Part shown: in pieces, positions 192 through 28,831 of the stretch | How the letters are laid out: every line of letters starts with the position of its first letter | Numbering within the stretch: the stretch's first letter is position 1 | DNA from: Alphaproteobacteria bacterium | GTDB lineage: Bacteria > Pseudomonadota > Alphaproteobacteria > Bin65 | Direction: 5' to 3' | NCBI GenBank assembly: GCA_021776685.1 | Contig: JAJFFJ010000097.1 | Coordinates: 1 to 32,236 of the forward strand | Length of the DNA: 32,236 nucleotides | Program-made: the position numbers and the translations under genes | Notes under the pieces: generated by a model | What the model saw: only the letters and a program-made list of their open reading frames with translations | Database searches by the model: none | What the model was told of the DNA's origin: nothing

Positions 192-2432
192 ATGACCGAT
201 AGCAGCATGACCGGGAACAACATGACCAAGCCAGACCAGAATGGGCAGGACCTGACTAATCAGGACCTGATTGACCAAGTCTTGACTGAACAAGACGGGC
301 GCCCGTCGCGTCGGGAAGCACTTCAGGTTTTCGCGGCCGCCGGTGGCGGCCTGATGATTGGCTATGCCCTGCCAGGCACTGCCGCAGCGCGCATCCTGTC
401 ACCGTTTGACAAGACCGCATCGGACACCGCCCGCCTGCATGCCTACATTCGTATTTCCCCGGACAACAAGGTCGAAATTGTTTGCGGCAAGTCGGAAATG
501 GGTCAGGGCGCGCTCACCGGCTACGCCCAGGTGGTCGGCGACGAGCTGGATTGTGCCTGGGATGACATCACCGTTGTCCCGTCCCCGGTTCACCCGGTCT
601 ATGGCATCCCGCCTTACGGTTTCATGATTACCGGCGGGTCCACCACCATCCGCGCGCACTGGATGCAATTGCGCAAGGCCGGCGCCGCCGCACGGCATAT
701 CCTGCGGCAGGCGGCTGCGAAGAAATGGAAGGTTCCACTTGCACAGGTGCGCACCGAAGCAGGCCGCCTGACCGGCCCTGGGGGCCGGAAAGCCACCTAT
801 GGCGATTTCGCTGACGCTGCCGCGAAACTCACGACGCCAAAAAACACCCCACTCAAACCCAAGTCCCAGCGGACGATGATCGGCAAACCGCTCAAGCGGG
901 TCGACACCGCGGAGAAGGTCAACGGCACCGCCAAATACGGCATGGATGTGCGCCTGCCCGGCATGCTGACGGCGGTGATCGCATTTCCGCCGGATATCGG
1001 TGGCAAAATGGGCAAGATCGACGACAGCGCGGCGCTGAAGGTCCCCGGCGTCCGACAGGTGGTGAAGATCCGCGCGGGCGTCGCCATCGTTGCAGATCAC
1101 TACTGGGCAGCGGTCAAGGGCCGGGAGGCGCTGAAAGTCGACTGGCAGCCCGGGCCGTTTGCCAAGCTCGACAGCGATGGGGTTCGCCGCTCCTACACCA
1201 AAGCGCTCGAGAAAAAAGGTAGGCTTGCAGAGACACGCGGCGACACGGCCAAAGCGCCCGCCGCCAAGACCCTCAACATGGACTTTGAGCAACCGTTCCT
1301 CGCCCAGGCCTGTATGGAACCCATGAACTGCACCGTCCAGATCACGCCGCAGGGTGCGGAGATCTGGGCGCCGATCCAGTCGCAAACCATCGCGCAGCAG
1401 ACTGTTGCTGCCGTCACCGGACTGCCGCCCAAGAAGGTGAAGATCAACACCATGCTGCTGGGCGGCGGATTTGGCCGCCGGTCGGCGCCTGACTTCGTCG
1501 TCAATGCGACCGAGATTGCGAAAGCTGTGTCCGGGCCCGTGCGTCTGGTTTACTCGCGCGAGGACGACATGCGTGGGGCCTTCTACCGTCCCTTCAGCAT
1601 GACCCGGGTGAAGGCCAAGATCGGCGACGACAAGAAACTCAGTGCCCTCGAGATTCGCGTCGCTGTTGCTTCAGTGGCGAAATGGACACGGTTCAAGCCC
1701 CTGCTCCGCCCTGACGGCATCGACAGTCAGACCGTTGAGGGTTTCCATGACCTGCCCTATGCAATTCCAAACCTGAAGGTGGAATGGGTGGAGCATGATC
1801 TGGGCATTCCAATCTGGTTCTGGCGGTCCGTGGGCGCATCTCACAATCCGTTCGTGTTGGAAAGCGCCATAGACGAGGTCGCTCACGCCTCGGGACAGGA
1901 CCCTTACCAATTCCGGCGTGCGATGCTGACCGCCAAACCGCGCCACCGCGCCGTACTCGACCGTGCGGCGAAAGAGGCTGGCTGGACGCGTGCGCCGGCG
2001 AAAGGTGTCGCCCGCGGCATTGCACTGGTGGAATCCTTCGGGAGCATTTGCGCCCAGGTGGCCGAAGTACGCATGGACGCCGGCGACCTCAAAGTCGAAC
2101 GGATAACCTGCGTGATCGATTGTGGCGTCGCGGTAAATCCACAGCAGATCGTCGCGCAGATGGAAGGCAACATCGCCTACGGCCTGTCTGCCCTGCTTGA
2201 TGGCAAGATAACCTTGAAAAATGGCCGGCCGGAGCAAGATAACTTTGACAGTTACCTTCCCCTGCGTATGAACGAGATGCCTCAGGTCGACGTGCATATC
2301 ATTGAAGGCGCGGCCGTTCCGGGCGGCGTCGGTGAGCCGGGTCTTCCACCCCTGCTGCCCGCTGTTGCCAATGCCGTCTTCGCGCTCACCGGCAAACGTC
2401 ATCGCCAACTGCCCCTGAGGAATAGTGGATAG
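192..2432 (+). CDS. Molybdopterin-binding large subunit, isoquinoline 1-oxidoreductase beta-like (xanthine dehydrogenase family)
   Basis: This 746-residue protein has the usual length of the single-chain IorB-type molybdopterin subunit. Residues 39-66 carry SRREAL followed by a hydrophobic stretch ending in a small-residue cleavage region, a twin-arginine signal, so the folded cofactor-loaded enzyme is probably exported. Molybdopterin-contact motifs include GGGFGRR and, near the C terminus, GGVGEPG, whose Glu is the expected catalytic base. Such enzymes hydroxylate N-heterocycles or oxidise aldehydes with water as the oxygen source. It follows the (2Fe-2S) subunit and overlaps the cytochrome c gene by 8 bases, giving a complete electron route. 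Residues 19-33 form an odd pentapeptide repeat. ATGs at 207 and 222 are alternative starts. The substrate is unknown. Confidence 0.93.
246..290 (+). repeat. Three imperfect 15-bp tandem units near the 5' end of the molybdopterin subunit gene
   Basis: Units 246-260, 261-275 and 276-290 share the pattern CAGGACCTGA followed by a variable end; the third is more diverged. They keep the reading frame and encode [10 protein letters not shown] and QVLTE just ahead of the twin-arginine motif. This looks like slippage-type expansion in the poorly constrained leader of a Tat substrate. Confidence 0.6.
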
Positions 2433-3084
2433 AGGCGGCACCGATTCCCCATCCTCCCTGCACCGTGGCGAAAGATCTGTTTCCCGCAGTGTGCTGGCCC
2501 TATGCGGCCTGGCTGTATTTGCGTGCTTTGTAGCGGCCGCGTCAGCGCTATACGGCCAGTCCAGGCCAGGCCTCAAACCGGTGCAGGCTTTTGATCAGAT
2601 CCGTGACCCCCGTGTTCGGTCAGGGGCACTGTTCAATGAGGCCGCCAAGGTTTTCCGCCATCCCCGCTGCACCAACTGTCACACGGTGAGCGACCGGCCG
2701 CGCCAAGGCGACCGGAGCCGCCCGCATCAGCCGCCGGTCGTGCGTGGGGCGAAGGGCTTCGGCATCCCCTCCTTGCGCTGCGCTTCGTGCCACCTGAACC
2801 GGAACAATCCCGCGGCACGGATTCCCGGCGGACCAAACTGGCATATGCCCCCTGCAAATATGGCCTTCCACGGCCGCACCGCGGCGCAGATCTGCCGATC
2901 AATCAAACGCGTTGCCGTGACGCGCAAACTGCCACTGGCCGCACTGGTGGCTCACAGCCGCAAGGACCACCTAGTCATTTGGGCTTGGCGGCCAGGCAAG
3001 CATCGACAACCCCCGCCAGGCACGCACAAAAGTTTCGTCGATCTGATGGCGGCCTGGGTCGCCACAGGCGGCCACTGCCCCTAG
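2425..3084 (+). CDS. Membrane-anchored di-heme cytochrome c-like partner of the molybdenum hydroxylase
   Basis: The 219-residue protein has one hydrophobic segment (about residues 22-43) followed by an exported domain with two heme c attachment motifs, CTNCH at 82-86 and CASCH at 119-123. HMPPANM downstream offers methionines as axial ligands. It starts with GTG inside the end of the molybdopterin subunit gene (8-base overlap), with TGAGG 4 bases upstream, so translation is probably coupled. By position and motifs it should accept electrons from the iron-sulfur subunit in the periplasm and pass them to the respiratory chain. Proteins of this kind are often labelled isoquinoline 1-oxidoreductase subunit. 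The heme count is read from the sequence; the partner assignment is inferred from context. Confidence 0.85.
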   Translation: MDRGGTDSPSSLHRGERSVSRSVLALCGLAVFACFVAAASALYGQSRPGLKPVQAFDQIRDPRVRSGALFNEAAKVFRHPRCTNCHTVSDRPRQGDRSRPHQPPVVRGAKGFGIPSLRCASCHLNRNNPAARIPGGPNWHMPPANMAFHGRTAAQICRSIKRVAVTRKLPLAALVAHSRKDHLVIWAWRPGKHRQPPPGTHKSFVDLMAAWVATGGHCP

Positions 3085-22142: not shown

Positions 22143-22937
22143 CTAAGTTGGGATTTTCAACACCGTGCCAATAGCCACATTGCCTGGATCAGCCACGCTG
22201 TTCAACGCAATCAATCGGTCGAGACTGACATCGTGCTTTCGGGCAATAGCCCAAAGCGTATCCCCTCGTTTAATTGTGTGGGTTTTTTGCGGTTTGTCGC
22301 CAAGGATGTCACTGAAGATGCCGGGAATCGATGGCACATCGATCTCTGCATCACTTGCGTCGATCGACTCAAGATCACGTTCTTTCCACTCTGCGACAGC
22401 CTGAATCAGTGGGCCTTTTTCTAGATCGCCTGGACAGGCAGTCGCCTGCCCTTCTTTGTGGAACATGATCGCGTCATGATCGAGTTTGGCTCGTTCTTGA
22501 AACGCAGCAATCTGCCGGACCAAGCTTTGATACTGCGCATCCGGCATGGGATATTCCTTGCCGCGGCGGAAATCGCCAACGCATTCGGTCATGAAGGAGC
22601 CCGTGTTCCAGCCTGTGATCCCGGCAGGAATACGGTTCCAGGAACGGCATAGACCGATCAACCCATCCGGCATCGTAACCGTCTGCATGCCTCCATCGCT
22701 CCAACCTCGGCCCCCCTGGCTCTTCGGGCGGGTATGGAAAATCCAAATTCCAGTGGTGACTTCCAATGCTGCCTTTTTTGCGTCGCCGCTATGCCTTTTC
22801 ACAACTCTCTTCCAATCGGCGCGTGTCGGACTCGCGGTGTGGTGGACTTGGAACCGCTTCAATTGCCGGGTGAATTTGAAAGAATTCATCTCCTTTTCAA
22901 ACTGATCCGGCGTAAGAACACGAGTTGGCTTGGGCAT
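22143..22937 (-). CDS. N-acetylmuramoyl-L-alanine amidase (PGRP/amidase_2-like) with C-terminal LysM
   Basis: The protein (264 residues) has an amidase_2 zinc site with His32 or His33 in VHHTASP, His160 in MFHKEG and Cys168 in TACPGD. A single LysM repeat covers about residues 219-264 (HTIKRGDTLWAIARKH...LKIPT). This architecture cleaves the amide between muramic acid and L-Ala in peptidoglycan. No signal peptide or membrane segment is present, unlike housekeeping amidases and like phage endolysins or secreted effectors. Base composition is more AT-rich than in its neighbours, which hints at transfer. No holin, spanin or phage gene is nearby. Confidence 0.85.
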   Translation of the reverse strand: MPKPTRVLTPDQFEKEMNSFKFTRQLKRFQVHHTASPTRADWKRVVKRHSGDAKKAALEVTTGIWIFHTRPKSQGGRGWSDGGMQTVTMPDGLIGLCRSWNRIPAGITGWNTGSFMTECVGDFRRGKEYPMPDAQYQSLVRQIAAFQERAKLDHDAIMFHKEGQATACPGDLEKGPLIQAVAEWKERDLESIDASDAEIDVPSIPGIFSDILGDKPQKTHTIKRGDTLWAIARKHDVSLDRLIALNSVADPGNVAIGTVLKIPT

Positions 22938-24583: not shown

Positions 24584-26278
24584 TCAGCCGACGCAGCAGG
24601 GACAGCTTGGGCCGGCGGACATGGCCATGCCCTGAGAAAGGCTGATGGACTGAACCGGCAGGGACGTCGCCGGTGGCCGCGCGTCGAACCGACCTCCTCC
24701 GCCGCCAGCGTGCGCTTGGCCGTGACGGTTGCCCATCACCTCACCCGCGCCGATACCGGTGATGATTTCGAACTCGTGGGCGGCAACTGTGCTGTCCAGC
24801 TCGATGGTCGTGCCATCCACCTGGCGCCATTTGTCGGTGGGGGCGCCATCGCAGCGAACGGCGACCAGCGACGCATCAGGCAATTGCGTGACGCGGAATC
24901 GGGTGTCGCCACCTGCCTTGCTGCTGTCCGCCGCGTAGGTGGTGATACGCAGGACGCCCTGCGCCAAATCATTCCAGGCGCGCGATATGCCGACGGTCGG
25001 AAAATCCACCCCTTCCACGGTCGGCTGGCTGAATTTCTCAAGGTTCGGATTGCGGAACAGATTGGTCCAGGCGCCAGGTGAGCCAACCTCGCCCATGGCC
25101 AGCAGCGCGCTCAGCTGGCCCCGCGGCCAATCCTCGCCAAACTGGAACCACCAGCCGAATTCATCATTGGTCGGACCAAAGCGCCGGGGCTCGTAATGTT
25201 CCTCCGCATAGGCATTCAACTTGCCCAGGGTGACGTCATCGCCATATTCCCGGGCCAGCGCCACGGTTACCGCCAGGAAACGCGGATCGTTAGGCGCACG
25301 CACCTGCTTCGCCGGGTCGTTCCAGCCGAGCTTGTTGACCGCACCATGGTAGAGCGCCTCTCCCAACGCCGGGTCCTGCGCCATCATATAGAGACACACA
25401 CCCAGTCCGCCGCCGGGGCCAAGGGTCTGCTTATGCTCGATGATCGGGTCGTAGTAGAAGCACGTCCATTCCAGCTCGCCCTTGTCATTGAAGCCGAAAT
25501 AGTCGTCGCGCACATTCTCGAGCCACTGATGAAAGACCTGATGGGTGTCCTTCTTGAAGATGGCGTCATAGAGCTGAAGACCCAGTCCCGCCGCACTCAG
25601 ACAATAGGGCCAGACCTTGGTATTCTCGCAATGCAGGCCCGCCGGATGGCGCGCCCATTGCTCCGCCAGATGCTCGGTGACGCCATGCTGCGTCCACTCG
25701 AACCGCGCCCGATCTATGCCCGCCACCTGGAACGGCTGGGTCCAACGGTCTTCGCCTGAAACATAGGCGTGAAGCGACATGGTCAGGTTGAGCCAGCCCT
25801 TGAAGAAAAGGTTGCCTTCAGCGCCGATCGGGTCCGGTTGCAGACCCCAGGGCTCCACGCCATTGGCGCACCAACCGGGCGTGTCATATTCGCCGACCAG
25901 ATGGGGCGGGATCAGCAGGTCGATCCATTCCTGCGGATAGTCGCCCCGCCGCGGATCGGGGCCGATGTGGGTGATCCAGTCAATTGCCGCCCAGTAGGTG
26001 AGATGCCGTTCGACCAACTGCTCAAGAATGGTTGCATAGACCTCGCGCCAGGCGGGCGTGCGATCCGCCATGATACCCAATGCATAGCTGGATTCGGACA
26101 GATCAAAGCGCGGGAAATCGCACATCGGCTCGGTGGAGGACTGGTCCCACCAGGGATGCGGCGTGCCGTCCTCCGACCAGTCGTCCGGCGTAGTCGCTTT
26201 GCGCCACAGAAAACGCAGCCAGCCGCGCGCACGGTCGTTTAGTGCAGGCGCGAAACCATCAGATACAGTTTCAGCCAT
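24584..26278 (-). CDS. Linalool dehydratase/isomerase (LDI)-like protein
   Basis: The protein (564 residues) is longer than LinD of Castellaniella defragrans. Comparing with LinD from memory, GNLFFKGWLNLTMSLHAYVSG (residues 155-175) matches its NIMYKGHLNL region, and GLHCENTKVWPYC gives Cys217 and Cys226, nine residues apart as in the LinD catalytic pair Cys171/Cys180. RFDLSESSYALG matches the preceding helix, and Asp45 may match Asp39. The LinD His129 position (KGH) reads Trp162 here. The fold is an alpha/alpha barrel. LinD is secreted; no signal peptide is visible here. The C-terminal third has extra beta-type sequence and ends in SCPCCVG. A lyase or isomerase on a terpenoid or other alkenol is possible, but the His change argues for different chemistry. 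Confidence 0.7.
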   Translation of the reverse strand: MAETVSDGFAPALNDRARGWLRFLWRKATTPDDWSEDGTPHPWWDQSSTEPMCDFPRFDLSESSYALGIMADRTPAWREVYATILEQLVERHLTYWAAIDWITHIGPDPRRGDYPQEWIDLLIPPHLVGEYDTPGWCANGVEPWGLQPDPIGAEGNLFFKGWLNLTMSLHAYVSGEDRWTQPFQVAGIDRARFEWTQHGVTEHLAEQWARHPAGLHCENTKVWPYCLSAAGLGLQLYDAIFKKDTHQVFHQWLENVRDDYFGFNDKGELEWTCFYYDPIIEHKQTLGPGGGLGVCLYMMAQDPALGEALYHGAVNKLGWNDPAKQVRAPNDPRFLAVTVALAREYGDDVTLGKLNAYAEEHYEPRRFGPTNDEFGWWFQFGEDWPRGQLSALLAMGEVGSPGAWTNLFRNPNLEKFSQPTVEGVDFPTVGISRAWNDLAQGVLRITTYAADSSKAGGDTRFRVTQLPDASLVAVRCDGAPTDKWRQVDGTTIELDSTVAAHEFEIITGIGAGEVMGNRHGQAHAGGGGGRFDARPPATSLPVQSISLSQGMAMSAGPSCPCCVG

Positions 26279-26411: not shown

Positions 26412-27245
26412 TTAGCGTCGTCCGCAGGGCCGCGCTTTGTGGATGCAGGAATACCGCTCTTCACCCTGCAGGCGTTTGCTGCACCGGTAACCAGCGCTCC
26501 AGATTAGGTTTGGGTCGCTATAGGTTGCGCCATGGCGCCGTCGCGCTTCCACCAGCCAGGCCTCCAATGCCCGAAGTTGCGCCTGCTGTTTGGTGCGGCC
26601 GTTTCGGCCGCGAATAGCGAGAGCCGGCTGGCAGTTCAGGCCGGGCGGCGGCGCGTCCGTGATGCGATAGAGTGACCAGGCGCCGCGCACCCGATCAGCC
26701 TGTGCGGCAACGCGCGGAACATGGCAGTAGAGCGTCAGAGTTGCGGGCTGGATCGCATCCTGGTCACGGCATTTGCCGGTTCCGCCAATCTTGTTGATGT
26801 AGATGCGAAAGCCTTGAATGACGCGCTTGTCGGCTTTCAACTCATTTACGGTAGGACGAAAGGGACGGCCCAGGCGTGGACGCGAACAGATAAATTCCTT
26901 CAGCGCCGTGCGCGGCTCGGTAAATACAAATCCCGACAGGCCTCGGCCATAACGGCTGGAATCGTGCAATATGCGAGGTTTGTGGGCGCAAAGCCTGGGA
27001 ATAGAATTTCGGTTGGTTAGCAACATGCCACGGACGCATTTAAGCACGACCAGATTTTGCCTCCTGTTGGATTGGCTGGCGAAGAGATATCGCGCCCATG
27101 ACCAAAACCGGGATCGTGGCAGTTCGGTAGGATTTAGCCCTGCACCCACCATAATTACACGCAAATGACATTTTCGATATTCAGCCGCCGAAACCGCGCC
27201 GGCAATTGCCGGCAGCAATGCCAGCCCCAGTATAAATTTTTTCAC
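26412..27245 (-). CDS. Secreted cysteine-rich protein of unknown function (paralog A, with C-terminal extra domain)
   Basis: I do not recognise the family. The protein (277 residues) has a Sec signal (MKKFILGLALLPAIAGAVSA) and ten mature-region cysteines. The first six (26, 70, 86, 120, 159, 174) have exactly the spacing of the six in paralog B at 27261-27878. Shared blocks are ELPRSRF and the stretch from YIN through GG.GKC to LTLYC. Residues about 209-277 form an added domain with four more cysteines and the pattern YRC...YSC...ARPC. The protein is basic and probably periplasmic or extracellular with several disulfides. It follows paralog B by 15 bases on the same strand. Confidence 0.75.
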   Translation of the reverse strand: MKKFILGLALLPAIAGAVSAAEYRKCHLRVIMVGAGLNPTELPRSRFWSWARYLFASQSNRRQNLVVLKCVRGMLLTNRNSIPRLCAHKPRILHDSSRYGRGLSGFVFTEPRTALKEFICSRPRLGRPFRPTVNELKADKRVIQGFRIYINKIGGTGKCRDQDAIQPATLTLYCHVPRVAAQADRVRGAWSLYRITDAPPPGLNCQPALAIRGRNGRTKQQAQLRALEAWLVEARRRHGATYSDPNLIWSAGYRCSKRLQGEERYSCIHKARPCGRR

Positions 27246-27260
27246 CTGCCCCTCTCCTCT

Positions 27261-27878
27261 TCATCGCTCACTTTTCCGCACGACCCGATAAAGCACCCAG
27301 CCGTCGCTTGTTCGTCGATCTTTCAGGCCGGCGGCATCCCGCGGTGTCCGGCAATACAGTGTCAGGGATTTCATCTGGACGATGGTATTGTCTGGGCACT
27401 TTCCAGGACCGCCCACCTGGTTGATATAAACTCTAGCTGCTTTGATGCGGCGACGGTCCATAGCCGCATCCTTTTCTGGCGCATTGGCGGCGGCGGCCAG
27501 GCCTGCCTTGGCGCAAACGGCCGCCTTGAGCGCTTGTCGTCCGAGGGTGAATTTAAACGCCACCATGCCGGCCGCGATCTTGGTTGGGTCATTGAGCGCT
27601 GCTGGTTTCTCATGACAGTATTTTGGCACGCGCCGATAGTTGCCGAACACCATCGTCAACGCGCAATAGCGTGTGTGGTTGGCAAGGCCCACCCGGGCAT
27701 TCCTGGCGGTATCGGCCCGCGACCAGGCGGTAAAACGGGACCGCGGCAACTCAACGGGGTTGATGCCCTCACCGGCCACCACGATTCGCAACTGGCACCT
27801 GTTGAGTTCCAGCGCATGCGAGATTTGGGGCGCTATGCAAGCGGCGGCCCCGCACAGAAGGAGAAATAGCCGCGTCAT
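27261..27878 (-). CDS. Secreted cysteine-rich protein of unknown function (paralog B)
   Basis: The 205-residue protein has a signal peptide (MTRLFLLLCGAAACIAPQISHA) and six mature-region cysteines at 28, 72, 88, 122, 161 and 176, the same spacing as in paralog A with a constant offset of two. It ends where the added domain of paralog A begins. ATG 27878 is chosen because it starts the signal peptide and AGAGG lies upstream; the frame is open to 27908. It starts 26 bases after the end of the dehydrogenase gene and may share its transcript. No function can be assigned. Confidence 0.75.
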   Translation of the reverse strand: MTRLFLLLCGAAACIAPQISHALELNRCQLRIVVAGEGINPVELPRSRFTAWSRADTARNARVGLANHTRYCALTMVFGNYRRVPKYCHEKPAALNDPTKIAAGMVAFKFTLGRQALKAAVCAKAGLAAAANAPEKDAAMDRRRIKAARVYINQVGGPGKCPDNTIVQMKSLTLYCRTPRDAAGLKDRRTSDGWVLYRVVRKSER

Positions 27879-27904: not shown

Positions 27905-28831
27905 TCATTCGCTATCCATGATCTCCGCGATGCGTTCAGGCGGTATACGCACGGCAACCCCCGCACGCTCCTCCTGCAGCTTCATAGGCGCGCGCGAATC
28001 CTGATCGGCCCAGCCCCGCTCCATACCGGCATTCAACTCCGTGAGCGTCATTTCCGCCAGCGCCATGGGAACGTCGAATTCACGGCCCAGCTCAACCGCC
28101 AGGCGCACGTCCTTGGTCGCGAGTTTGAGAGTGAAGTCCGGCGGCTCGAACTTGCCGGGCAAATACTGGATGCCCATACGGTCGAAGGTGCGGGCGCGGC
28201 CTAGGGCGCATTTCCGGATCGCCGACCACATGGATTCAGCATCAAGCCCGGCGGCGACGCCCATGGTGAAACACTCGGCCAGCGCCGTCTGGATCATGTA
28301 ACCACTCAGGTTGTGGACCAGTTTTGCGATCGACCCGGCGCCGATCGGACCCACATAGATCGGCTGATCTGCCATCGCCTGCAACACCGGTAGGCCGCGG
28401 ATGAACGCGGCTTCATCGCCGCCAACCAGCACCGCCAGTTTGCCGGATCGCGCGCCCTGGGGACCACCGCTGACCGGGGCATCCAGCAAAGTCACGCCTT
28501 TCTCCGCCATCTCGTCATGCAGGCGCCTGACCTCGGTGGGTGCGTTGGTGGAAAGATCGAAGACCAGCAGGCCCGCGCCCGCGCCGTCGGCAATGCCGCC
28601 CGTGCCCGTTAGCACCGCCGCCACCTCCGCCGGCCCCGGCAGGGACAGCAGCACGACATCGGACCACGACGCCACCGCCGCCGGATTATCCGCCCACGTG
28701 GCGCCGCTATCCATGAGGGCGCCCGCTGCCGGGGGATTCACATCGTGGACGACCAAGTCGAAACCGCCCGCTTGTATGTTCATCGCCATGGGCGCGCCCA
28801 TGGTGCCAAGACCGATAAACCCGACTTTCAT
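27905..28831 (-). CDS. NAD(P)-dependent 3-hydroxyisobutyrate dehydrogenase-family oxidoreductase
   Basis: The protein (308 residues) is a beta-hydroxyacid dehydrogenase: Rossmann GFIGLGTMGAPMA at residues 4-16, substrate motif DAPVSGGPQGARSG at 117-130, and catalytic Lys170 in GAGSIAKLVHN. The helical C-terminal domain follows. Family members oxidise 3-hydroxyisobutyrate, tartronate semialdehyde (in reverse), succinic semialdehyde or similar small hydroxyacids. It is divergent from the amidohydrolase gene with 59 bases between starts. The substrate is not decided by sequence. Confidence 0.92.
   Translation of the reverse strand: MKVGFIGLGTMGAPMAMNIQAGGFDLVVHDVNPPAAGALMDSGATWADNPAAVASWSDVVLLSLPGPAEVAAVLTGTGGIADGAGAGLLVFDLSTNAPTEVRRLHDEMAEKGVTLLDAPVSGGPQGARSGKLAVLVGGDEAAFIRGLPVLQAMADQPIYVGPIGAGSIAKLVHNLSGYMIQTALAECFTMGVAAGLDAESMWSAIRKCALGRARTFDRMGIQYLPGKFEPPDFTLKLATKDVRLAVELGREFDVPMALAEMTLTELNAGMERGWADQDSRAPMKLQEERAGVAVRIPPERIAEIMDSE

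What the first reader, a model, noticed from the sequence alone, without database searches (positions are those of the whole stretch)
26412..27878. Tandem secreted paralogs with identical spacing of six cysteines, one with an extra Cys-rich domain
Cysteines of A (26, 70, 86, 120, 159, 174) and B (28, 72, 88, 122, 161, 176) keep a constant offset of two over about 150 residues, while much of the rest differs. That implies three conserved disulfides and a rigid fold after an old duplication. Paralog A adds about 70 residues with four more cysteines (YRC...YSC...ARPC). I do not recognise the family.
Basis: seen in the sequence. Interest (0 to 1): 0.65.

Follow-up and report, generated by a model that had tools for sequence, protein, structure and literature searches.

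The report
Paired secreted disulfide proteins, unknown fold
Two neighbouring bacterial genes make related exported proteins, apparently held together by disulfide bonds, of a type found in no other genome searched here; one carries an extra four-cysteine domain that also occurs alone in small exported proteins of other bacteria.

Summary
A (26412-27245, minus) and B (27261-27878, minus) are intact genes, 37% identical, with all six mature-region cysteines in register. Coding on this strand is supported: BLOSUM score 348 against 84 antisense. Fourfold sites are near saturation, so the split is old.

The shared core matched nothing in Pfam, NCBIfam, PHROGs or PADLOC, and nothing significant among PDB sequences. 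No convincing relative appeared in 11 genomes of its family, 385 of its class, 398 of its phylum, two genome-contig scans, or plasmid, phage and viral collections. AlphaFold gave no usable model (mean pLDDT 33 and 43).

It stands alone in a small exported-looking protein of the same genome and in at least six from four other genomes. A profile built from five of those scores A's tail at E 3.8e-9, far above 600 shuffles. One relative lost the two middle cysteines together and kept the outer two, suggesting nested bonds C1-C4 and C2-C3. Only that relative reaches a Pfam family (DUF995), barely.

Function is open. My choice, at low confidence, is an envelope-located, disulfide-locked binding or scaffold pair.

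The parts
26412..27245 (-). Gene A, 277 aa, GTG start, exported-looking paralog with core plus tail domain
   Evidence: Shine-Dalgarno-like AGGAG upstream
27183..27245 (-). A signal-peptide-like N-terminus (residues 1-21, by eye)
   Evidence: sequence; no predictor was run
26655..27182 (-). A core domain, six cysteines (C26, C70, C86, C120, C159, C174)
26415..26654 (-). A tail domain, four cysteines (C205, C255, C267, C274); related to the single-domain protein on contig C52 and to L056, L057, L058, L059, L064, L073
27261..27878 (-). Gene B, 205 aa, exported-looking paralog, core only; an in-frame upstream ATG at 27908 overlaps the previous gene's stop (ATGA)
27813..27878 (-). B signal-peptide-like N-terminus (residues 1-22, by eye)
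   Evidence: sequence; no predictor was run
27264..27812 (-). B core domain, six cysteines (C28, C72, C88, C122, C161, C176)
27905..28831 (-). Upstream gene on the same strand: 3-hydroxyisobutyrate/6-phosphogluconate dehydrogenase family; likely co-transcribed, functional link not shown
   Evidence: spacing
24584..26278 (-). Downstream gene on the same strand: linalool dehydratase/isomerase-like (PF18566); link to A and B not shown

Best explanation
A and B are exported proteins that probably work in the periplasm or outside the cell. Both are built on one narrowly distributed core whose six cysteines most likely form three disulfides. They arose by an old duplication and sit in tandem. A has in addition, at its C-terminus, a complete four-cysteine domain that is a free-standing small exported-looking protein elsewhere; it joins close to what is the mature N-terminus of that protein (A ...APPPGLNC, C52 protein ...ALPGLTC). 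The likely bond pattern of the tail is C205-C274 and C255-C267. Shown: homology of A and B, cysteine register, coding strand, the tail as a separate domain. Inferred: export, disulfides, topology, operon. Mechanism, inferred only: a disulfide-stabilised binding or scaffold pair in the envelope, with the tail as a second binding module in A.
For: Paralogy and cysteine register. Coding strand. Tail domain: own contig C52 at E 2.9e-6; other genomes; a profile without either own-genome copy scores A's tail 34.5 bits, E 3.8e-9, and the C52 domain 47.9 bits, against a best of 8.1 bits among 600 shuffles. L073 has C2 to Y and C3 to A with C1 and C4 kept, which fits a C2-C3 bond. Same-strand spacing of 15 and 26 bases with Shine-Dalgarno-like sequences.
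Against: No function-bearing relative, no confident structure, no informative neighbourhood: loci of the tail domain have unlike neighbours. The basic charge of A and B (mature pI 11.0 and 10.4) is not special, since other exported-looking products of this window are also basic (pI 10.1 and 11.4), which weakens a polyanion-binding reading. The five outside tail members were found with a profile that contained A's tail, so the reverse score is not fully independent. The C2/C3 co-loss is a single case.
Confidence: 0.35

Rival explanations
1. A and B belong to a described fold or family that has diverged beyond sequence search.
For: Rapid change is plausible: only 37% identity between neighbours, and the profile held just two rows, so its reach is short.
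Against: No hit at E up to 10 in Pfam or NCBIfam, none in PHROGs or PADLOC at E up to 1; best PDB sequence match E 0.4.
Confidence: 0.35
2. A and B are secreted toxins, antimicrobials or interaction proteins released from the cell, the tail being a delivery or receptor-binding module.
For: Small, exported-looking, cysteine-rich, narrowly distributed and weakly adapted in codon use (0.06 and 0.08 against 0.22-0.28 for 7 of the 8 other genes compared).
Against: No immunity-like partner, secretion-system gene or defence family seen nearby; neighbours with Pfam hits are mostly metabolic. The eighth comparison gene, the LysM amidase, has codon use lower still (-0.09).
Confidence: 0.12
3. The open frames are artefacts, shadow frames of genes on the other strand, or decaying genes.
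For: Low codon adaptation; a 234-aa frame lies antisense to B.
Against: Sense score 348 against 84 antisense, 6 of 6 cysteines kept, codon position 3 the most variable, near-saturated fourfold sites without stops.
Confidence: 0.02
4. The tail domain is simply the C-terminal part of DUF995 (PF06191).
For: L073 scores 22.0 bits against a cut-off of 20; L058 scores 15.1.
Against: A's tail, the C52 domain, L056, L057, L059 and L064 do not match it at E up to 10; only 1 of 8 members passes, and only over profile positions 74-127 of 140.
Confidence: 0.15

Closest known systems
DUF995 (PF06191)
   Same: One outside relative of A's tail (L073) passes its curated cut-off, a closer relative of that one (L058) is just below; function unknown as well.
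   Different: A, B and six of the eight tail-domain members examined do not match it; the match covers only positions 74-127 of the 140-position profile.
Small single-domain exported-looking proteins of other genomes in the class (L056, L057, L058, L059, L064, L073), unnamed
   Same: Same four-cysteine layout, helix-like A..A...W stretch, conserved G, and C-x6-C at the end, as in A's tail (L073 has lost C2 and C3).
   Different: They stand alone behind a signal-like peptide; in A the domain follows a six-cysteine core.

Membership tests
DUF995 (PF06191) | Score of A or its tail at or above the Pfam cut-off of 20 bits | tested here: not met
   P0001 gave no family at E up to 10; its tail alone none at E up to 1
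Unnamed four-cysteine exported domain (defined here) | Score well above shuffles with a profile built without own-genome copies | tested here: met
   A tail 34.5 bits, E 3.8e-9; best of 600 shuffles 8.1 bits
Unnamed four-cysteine exported domain (defined here) | Four cysteines with C3-x6-C4 and the A..A...W helix-like stretch | tested here: met
   C267 and C274 are C-x6-C; alignments; L073 lacks C2 and C3, and in L064 C2 sits one column off
Unnamed four-cysteine exported domain (defined here) | Disulfide bonding C1-C4 and C2-C3 | not testable with these tools
   Only the co-loss in L073 speaks for it
   Zero families for A and B

The most novel reading that the evidence does not exclude
The core is a new disulfide-stabilised protein fold confined to one lineage, paired by duplication and then joined to a portable, undescribed four-cysteine exported domain that is spread through the class as small stand-alone proteins.
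Probability: 0.3. Interest if true: 0.55.

Novelty: new variant of a known kind. Interest (0 to 1): 0.38.

Why it matters
The core seems to be an orphan fold candidate with built-in evidence of constraint, because two old copies keep all cysteines. The tail turns out to be a recurrent exported-looking domain that current family libraries hardly cover. Naming it would annotate small exported proteins that have no family now, and the natural loss of two cysteines gives a testable bond pattern.

Tried and rejected
Weak hits dropped: the core matches in G041, G001, G152, G240, G443, G465, G555, G710, G723, G725 and own contigs C151 and C106 fall in other genes, in shadow frames or in frames with stops, and none keeps the cysteine register. 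The tail matches in G032, G293, G542, G706, G739 and G461, and the weak ones, were judged chance; so were the 23 other-genome matches (22 genomes), which stayed below the threshold when rescored on both strands. L075 and L074 score weakly (18.6 and 12.7 bits); L075 may be a divergent member, neither is counted.

A recalled motif for the tail (W...V...YG..[YF]..W) searched as a DNA pattern gave 3 of 190 genomes with a match against 1 control hit, no support in that strict form; a typed probe of the same recollection found nothing credible in plasmids. A looser form of the motif was later borne out.

Internal duplication of the core, suggested by cysteine spacings 44,16 and 39,15: profile comparison of the halves was reached by 31, 37 and 19 of 60 shuffles for three cut points; not supported. 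Core against tail: no similarity. A second four-cysteine protein beside L065 does not match the tail profile (1.4 bits). Structure: models too poor to search with, so no fold search was run. Papers: 'DUF995' gave one rice paper, search listing only; two term searches gave none. These three searches do not show that the family is absent from print.

Slips: some minus-strand loci were printed on the wrong strand; rescored both strands. The third protein was in the wrong frame and tells nothing.

Full report
What is there. Gene A (26412-27245, minus strand, GTG start, 277 aa) and gene B (27261-27878, minus strand, 205 aa) are intact. Both begin with a signal-peptide-like stretch (read by eye). 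They align over about 197 columns with a BLOSUM62 score of 327, where 500 shuffles reached at most 56, and are 37% identical. All 6 of 6 cysteines are kept against 59 of 169 other positions.

Is the frame right? A 234-aa frame lies antisense to B in the same codon phase, so I tested it. Aligned codons score 348 in the sense frame and 84 antisense, where five aligned pairs contain a stop. Codon positions differ in 53, 42 and 64% of aligned codons, as expected for the sense frame. Of 36 fourfold sites in identical residues 22 differ, near the 25.6 expected at saturation, so the duplication is old in terms of silent change. Codon usage of both genes is less adapted than that of seven of the eight other window genes compared; the LysM amidase gene at 22143-22937 is lower still.

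Setting. Upstream on the same strand lies a dehydrogenase of the 3-hydroxyisobutyrate/6-phosphogluconate type (27905-28831), downstream a linalool dehydratase/isomerase-like gene (24584-26278). B's start at 27878 lies 26 bases after the dehydrogenase gene, and an in-frame ATG at 27908 overlaps its stop; A follows B by 15 bases; Shine-Dalgarno-like sequences precede both. The promoter and terminator scan found about as many sites as shuffles or fewer. An operon is likely but not shown. The dehydrogenase had no match at E 1e-60 in the ten other genomes of the family, so the surroundings vary too.

The core. No family in Pfam or NCBIfam at E up to 10, none in PHROGs or PADLOC at E up to 1, best PDB sequence match E 0.4. 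A or the A/B core profile found convincing matches only in its own genome: 1 of 61 relatives, 1 of 11 in the family, 1 of 385 in the class, 1 of 398 in the phylum. The raw tallies were 2 of 61, 2 of 11, 3 of 385 and 7 of 398; the extra genomes had weak matches (E 0.0015 to 0.022) in other genes, shadow frames or frames with stops, without the cysteine register. Scans of genome contigs, viral contigs, plasmids and phages found none. AlphaFold2 with the two sequences gave mean pLDDT 32.8 for A and 43.0 for B, too low to use. A search for internal repeats was negative.

The tail of A. Residues 198-277 match a second place in the same genome, contig C52, at E 2.9e-6. That gene encodes a small exported-looking protein consisting of this domain. 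A two-row profile of the two own-genome copies was searched in 388 genomes of the phylum: 10 had a match at E up to 0.01; five look real (own, G597, G609 twice, G722, G477) and five do not. The five outside proteins (L056, L057, L058, L059, L064) are short open frames with signal-like N-termini and the same layout. A profile made of these five alone gives the C52 domain 47.9 bits and A's tail 34.5 bits (E 3.8e-9 in 3513 sequences); the best of 600 shuffles had 8.1 bits. A search of 15 chosen genomes with the seven-row profile added L073 in G722 (E 4.5e-17) and found no clear further copy in the own genome or in its ten family members. In a sample of 289 class genomes drawn evenly, only the own genome held convincing copies (raw tally 3 of 289). 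Plasmids gave none for two outside members and nothing significant for the C52 domain.

Anatomy of the tail. The alignment shows C1, a conserved G, a helix-like stretch A..A...W, a G, then C2, C3 and C4, the last two C-x6-C wherever both are present. In L064 C2 sits one column off. L073 has Y and A at C2 and C3 and keeps C1 and C4. This is one case, but it points to bonds C2-C3 and C1-C4, in A C255-C267 and C205-C274. The tail joins A close to the mature start of the C52 protein (APPPGLNC against ALPGLTC), as if a whole mature protein had been attached.

Family status. L073 passes the DUF995 cut-off (22.0 against 20) and L058 falls short (15.1); the other six of the eight members examined do not match. 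I do not file A under DUF995.

Function. Nothing here shows one. A and B are basic (mature pI 11.0 and 10.4), but other exported-looking products in the window are basic as well, so charge says little. I commit, at low confidence, to a disulfide-locked binding or scaffold pair in the cell envelope, the tail being a second binding module.

Noticed in passing
L065:2415-2918 (G609), beside a tail-domain gene: A second small exported-looking protein with four cysteines in a similar order (CTRLAF...W...VSC...YTCRAEASVC); it does not match the tail profile (1.4 bits) nor Pfam.
   Followed up: partly
window 22143-22937 (-): LysM plus Amidase_2 protein with low G+C (0.535) and unadapted codon use, as for A and B; the stretch from here to B may hold accessory DNA.
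   Followed up: no
window 24584-26278 (-): Linalool dehydratase/isomerase-like protein (PF18566), 45.5% identical to a protein on two Streptomyces plasmids and to no other plasmid record at E 1e-5.
   Followed up: partly
window 2425-3084 (+): Protein of 219 aa, pI 11.4, with CxxCH motifs and no Pfam hit.
   Followed up: no
L003:1868-2740 (-), own contig C52: Gene next to the single-domain tail protein encodes a 290-aa exported-looking protein without a Pfam family.
   Followed up: partly
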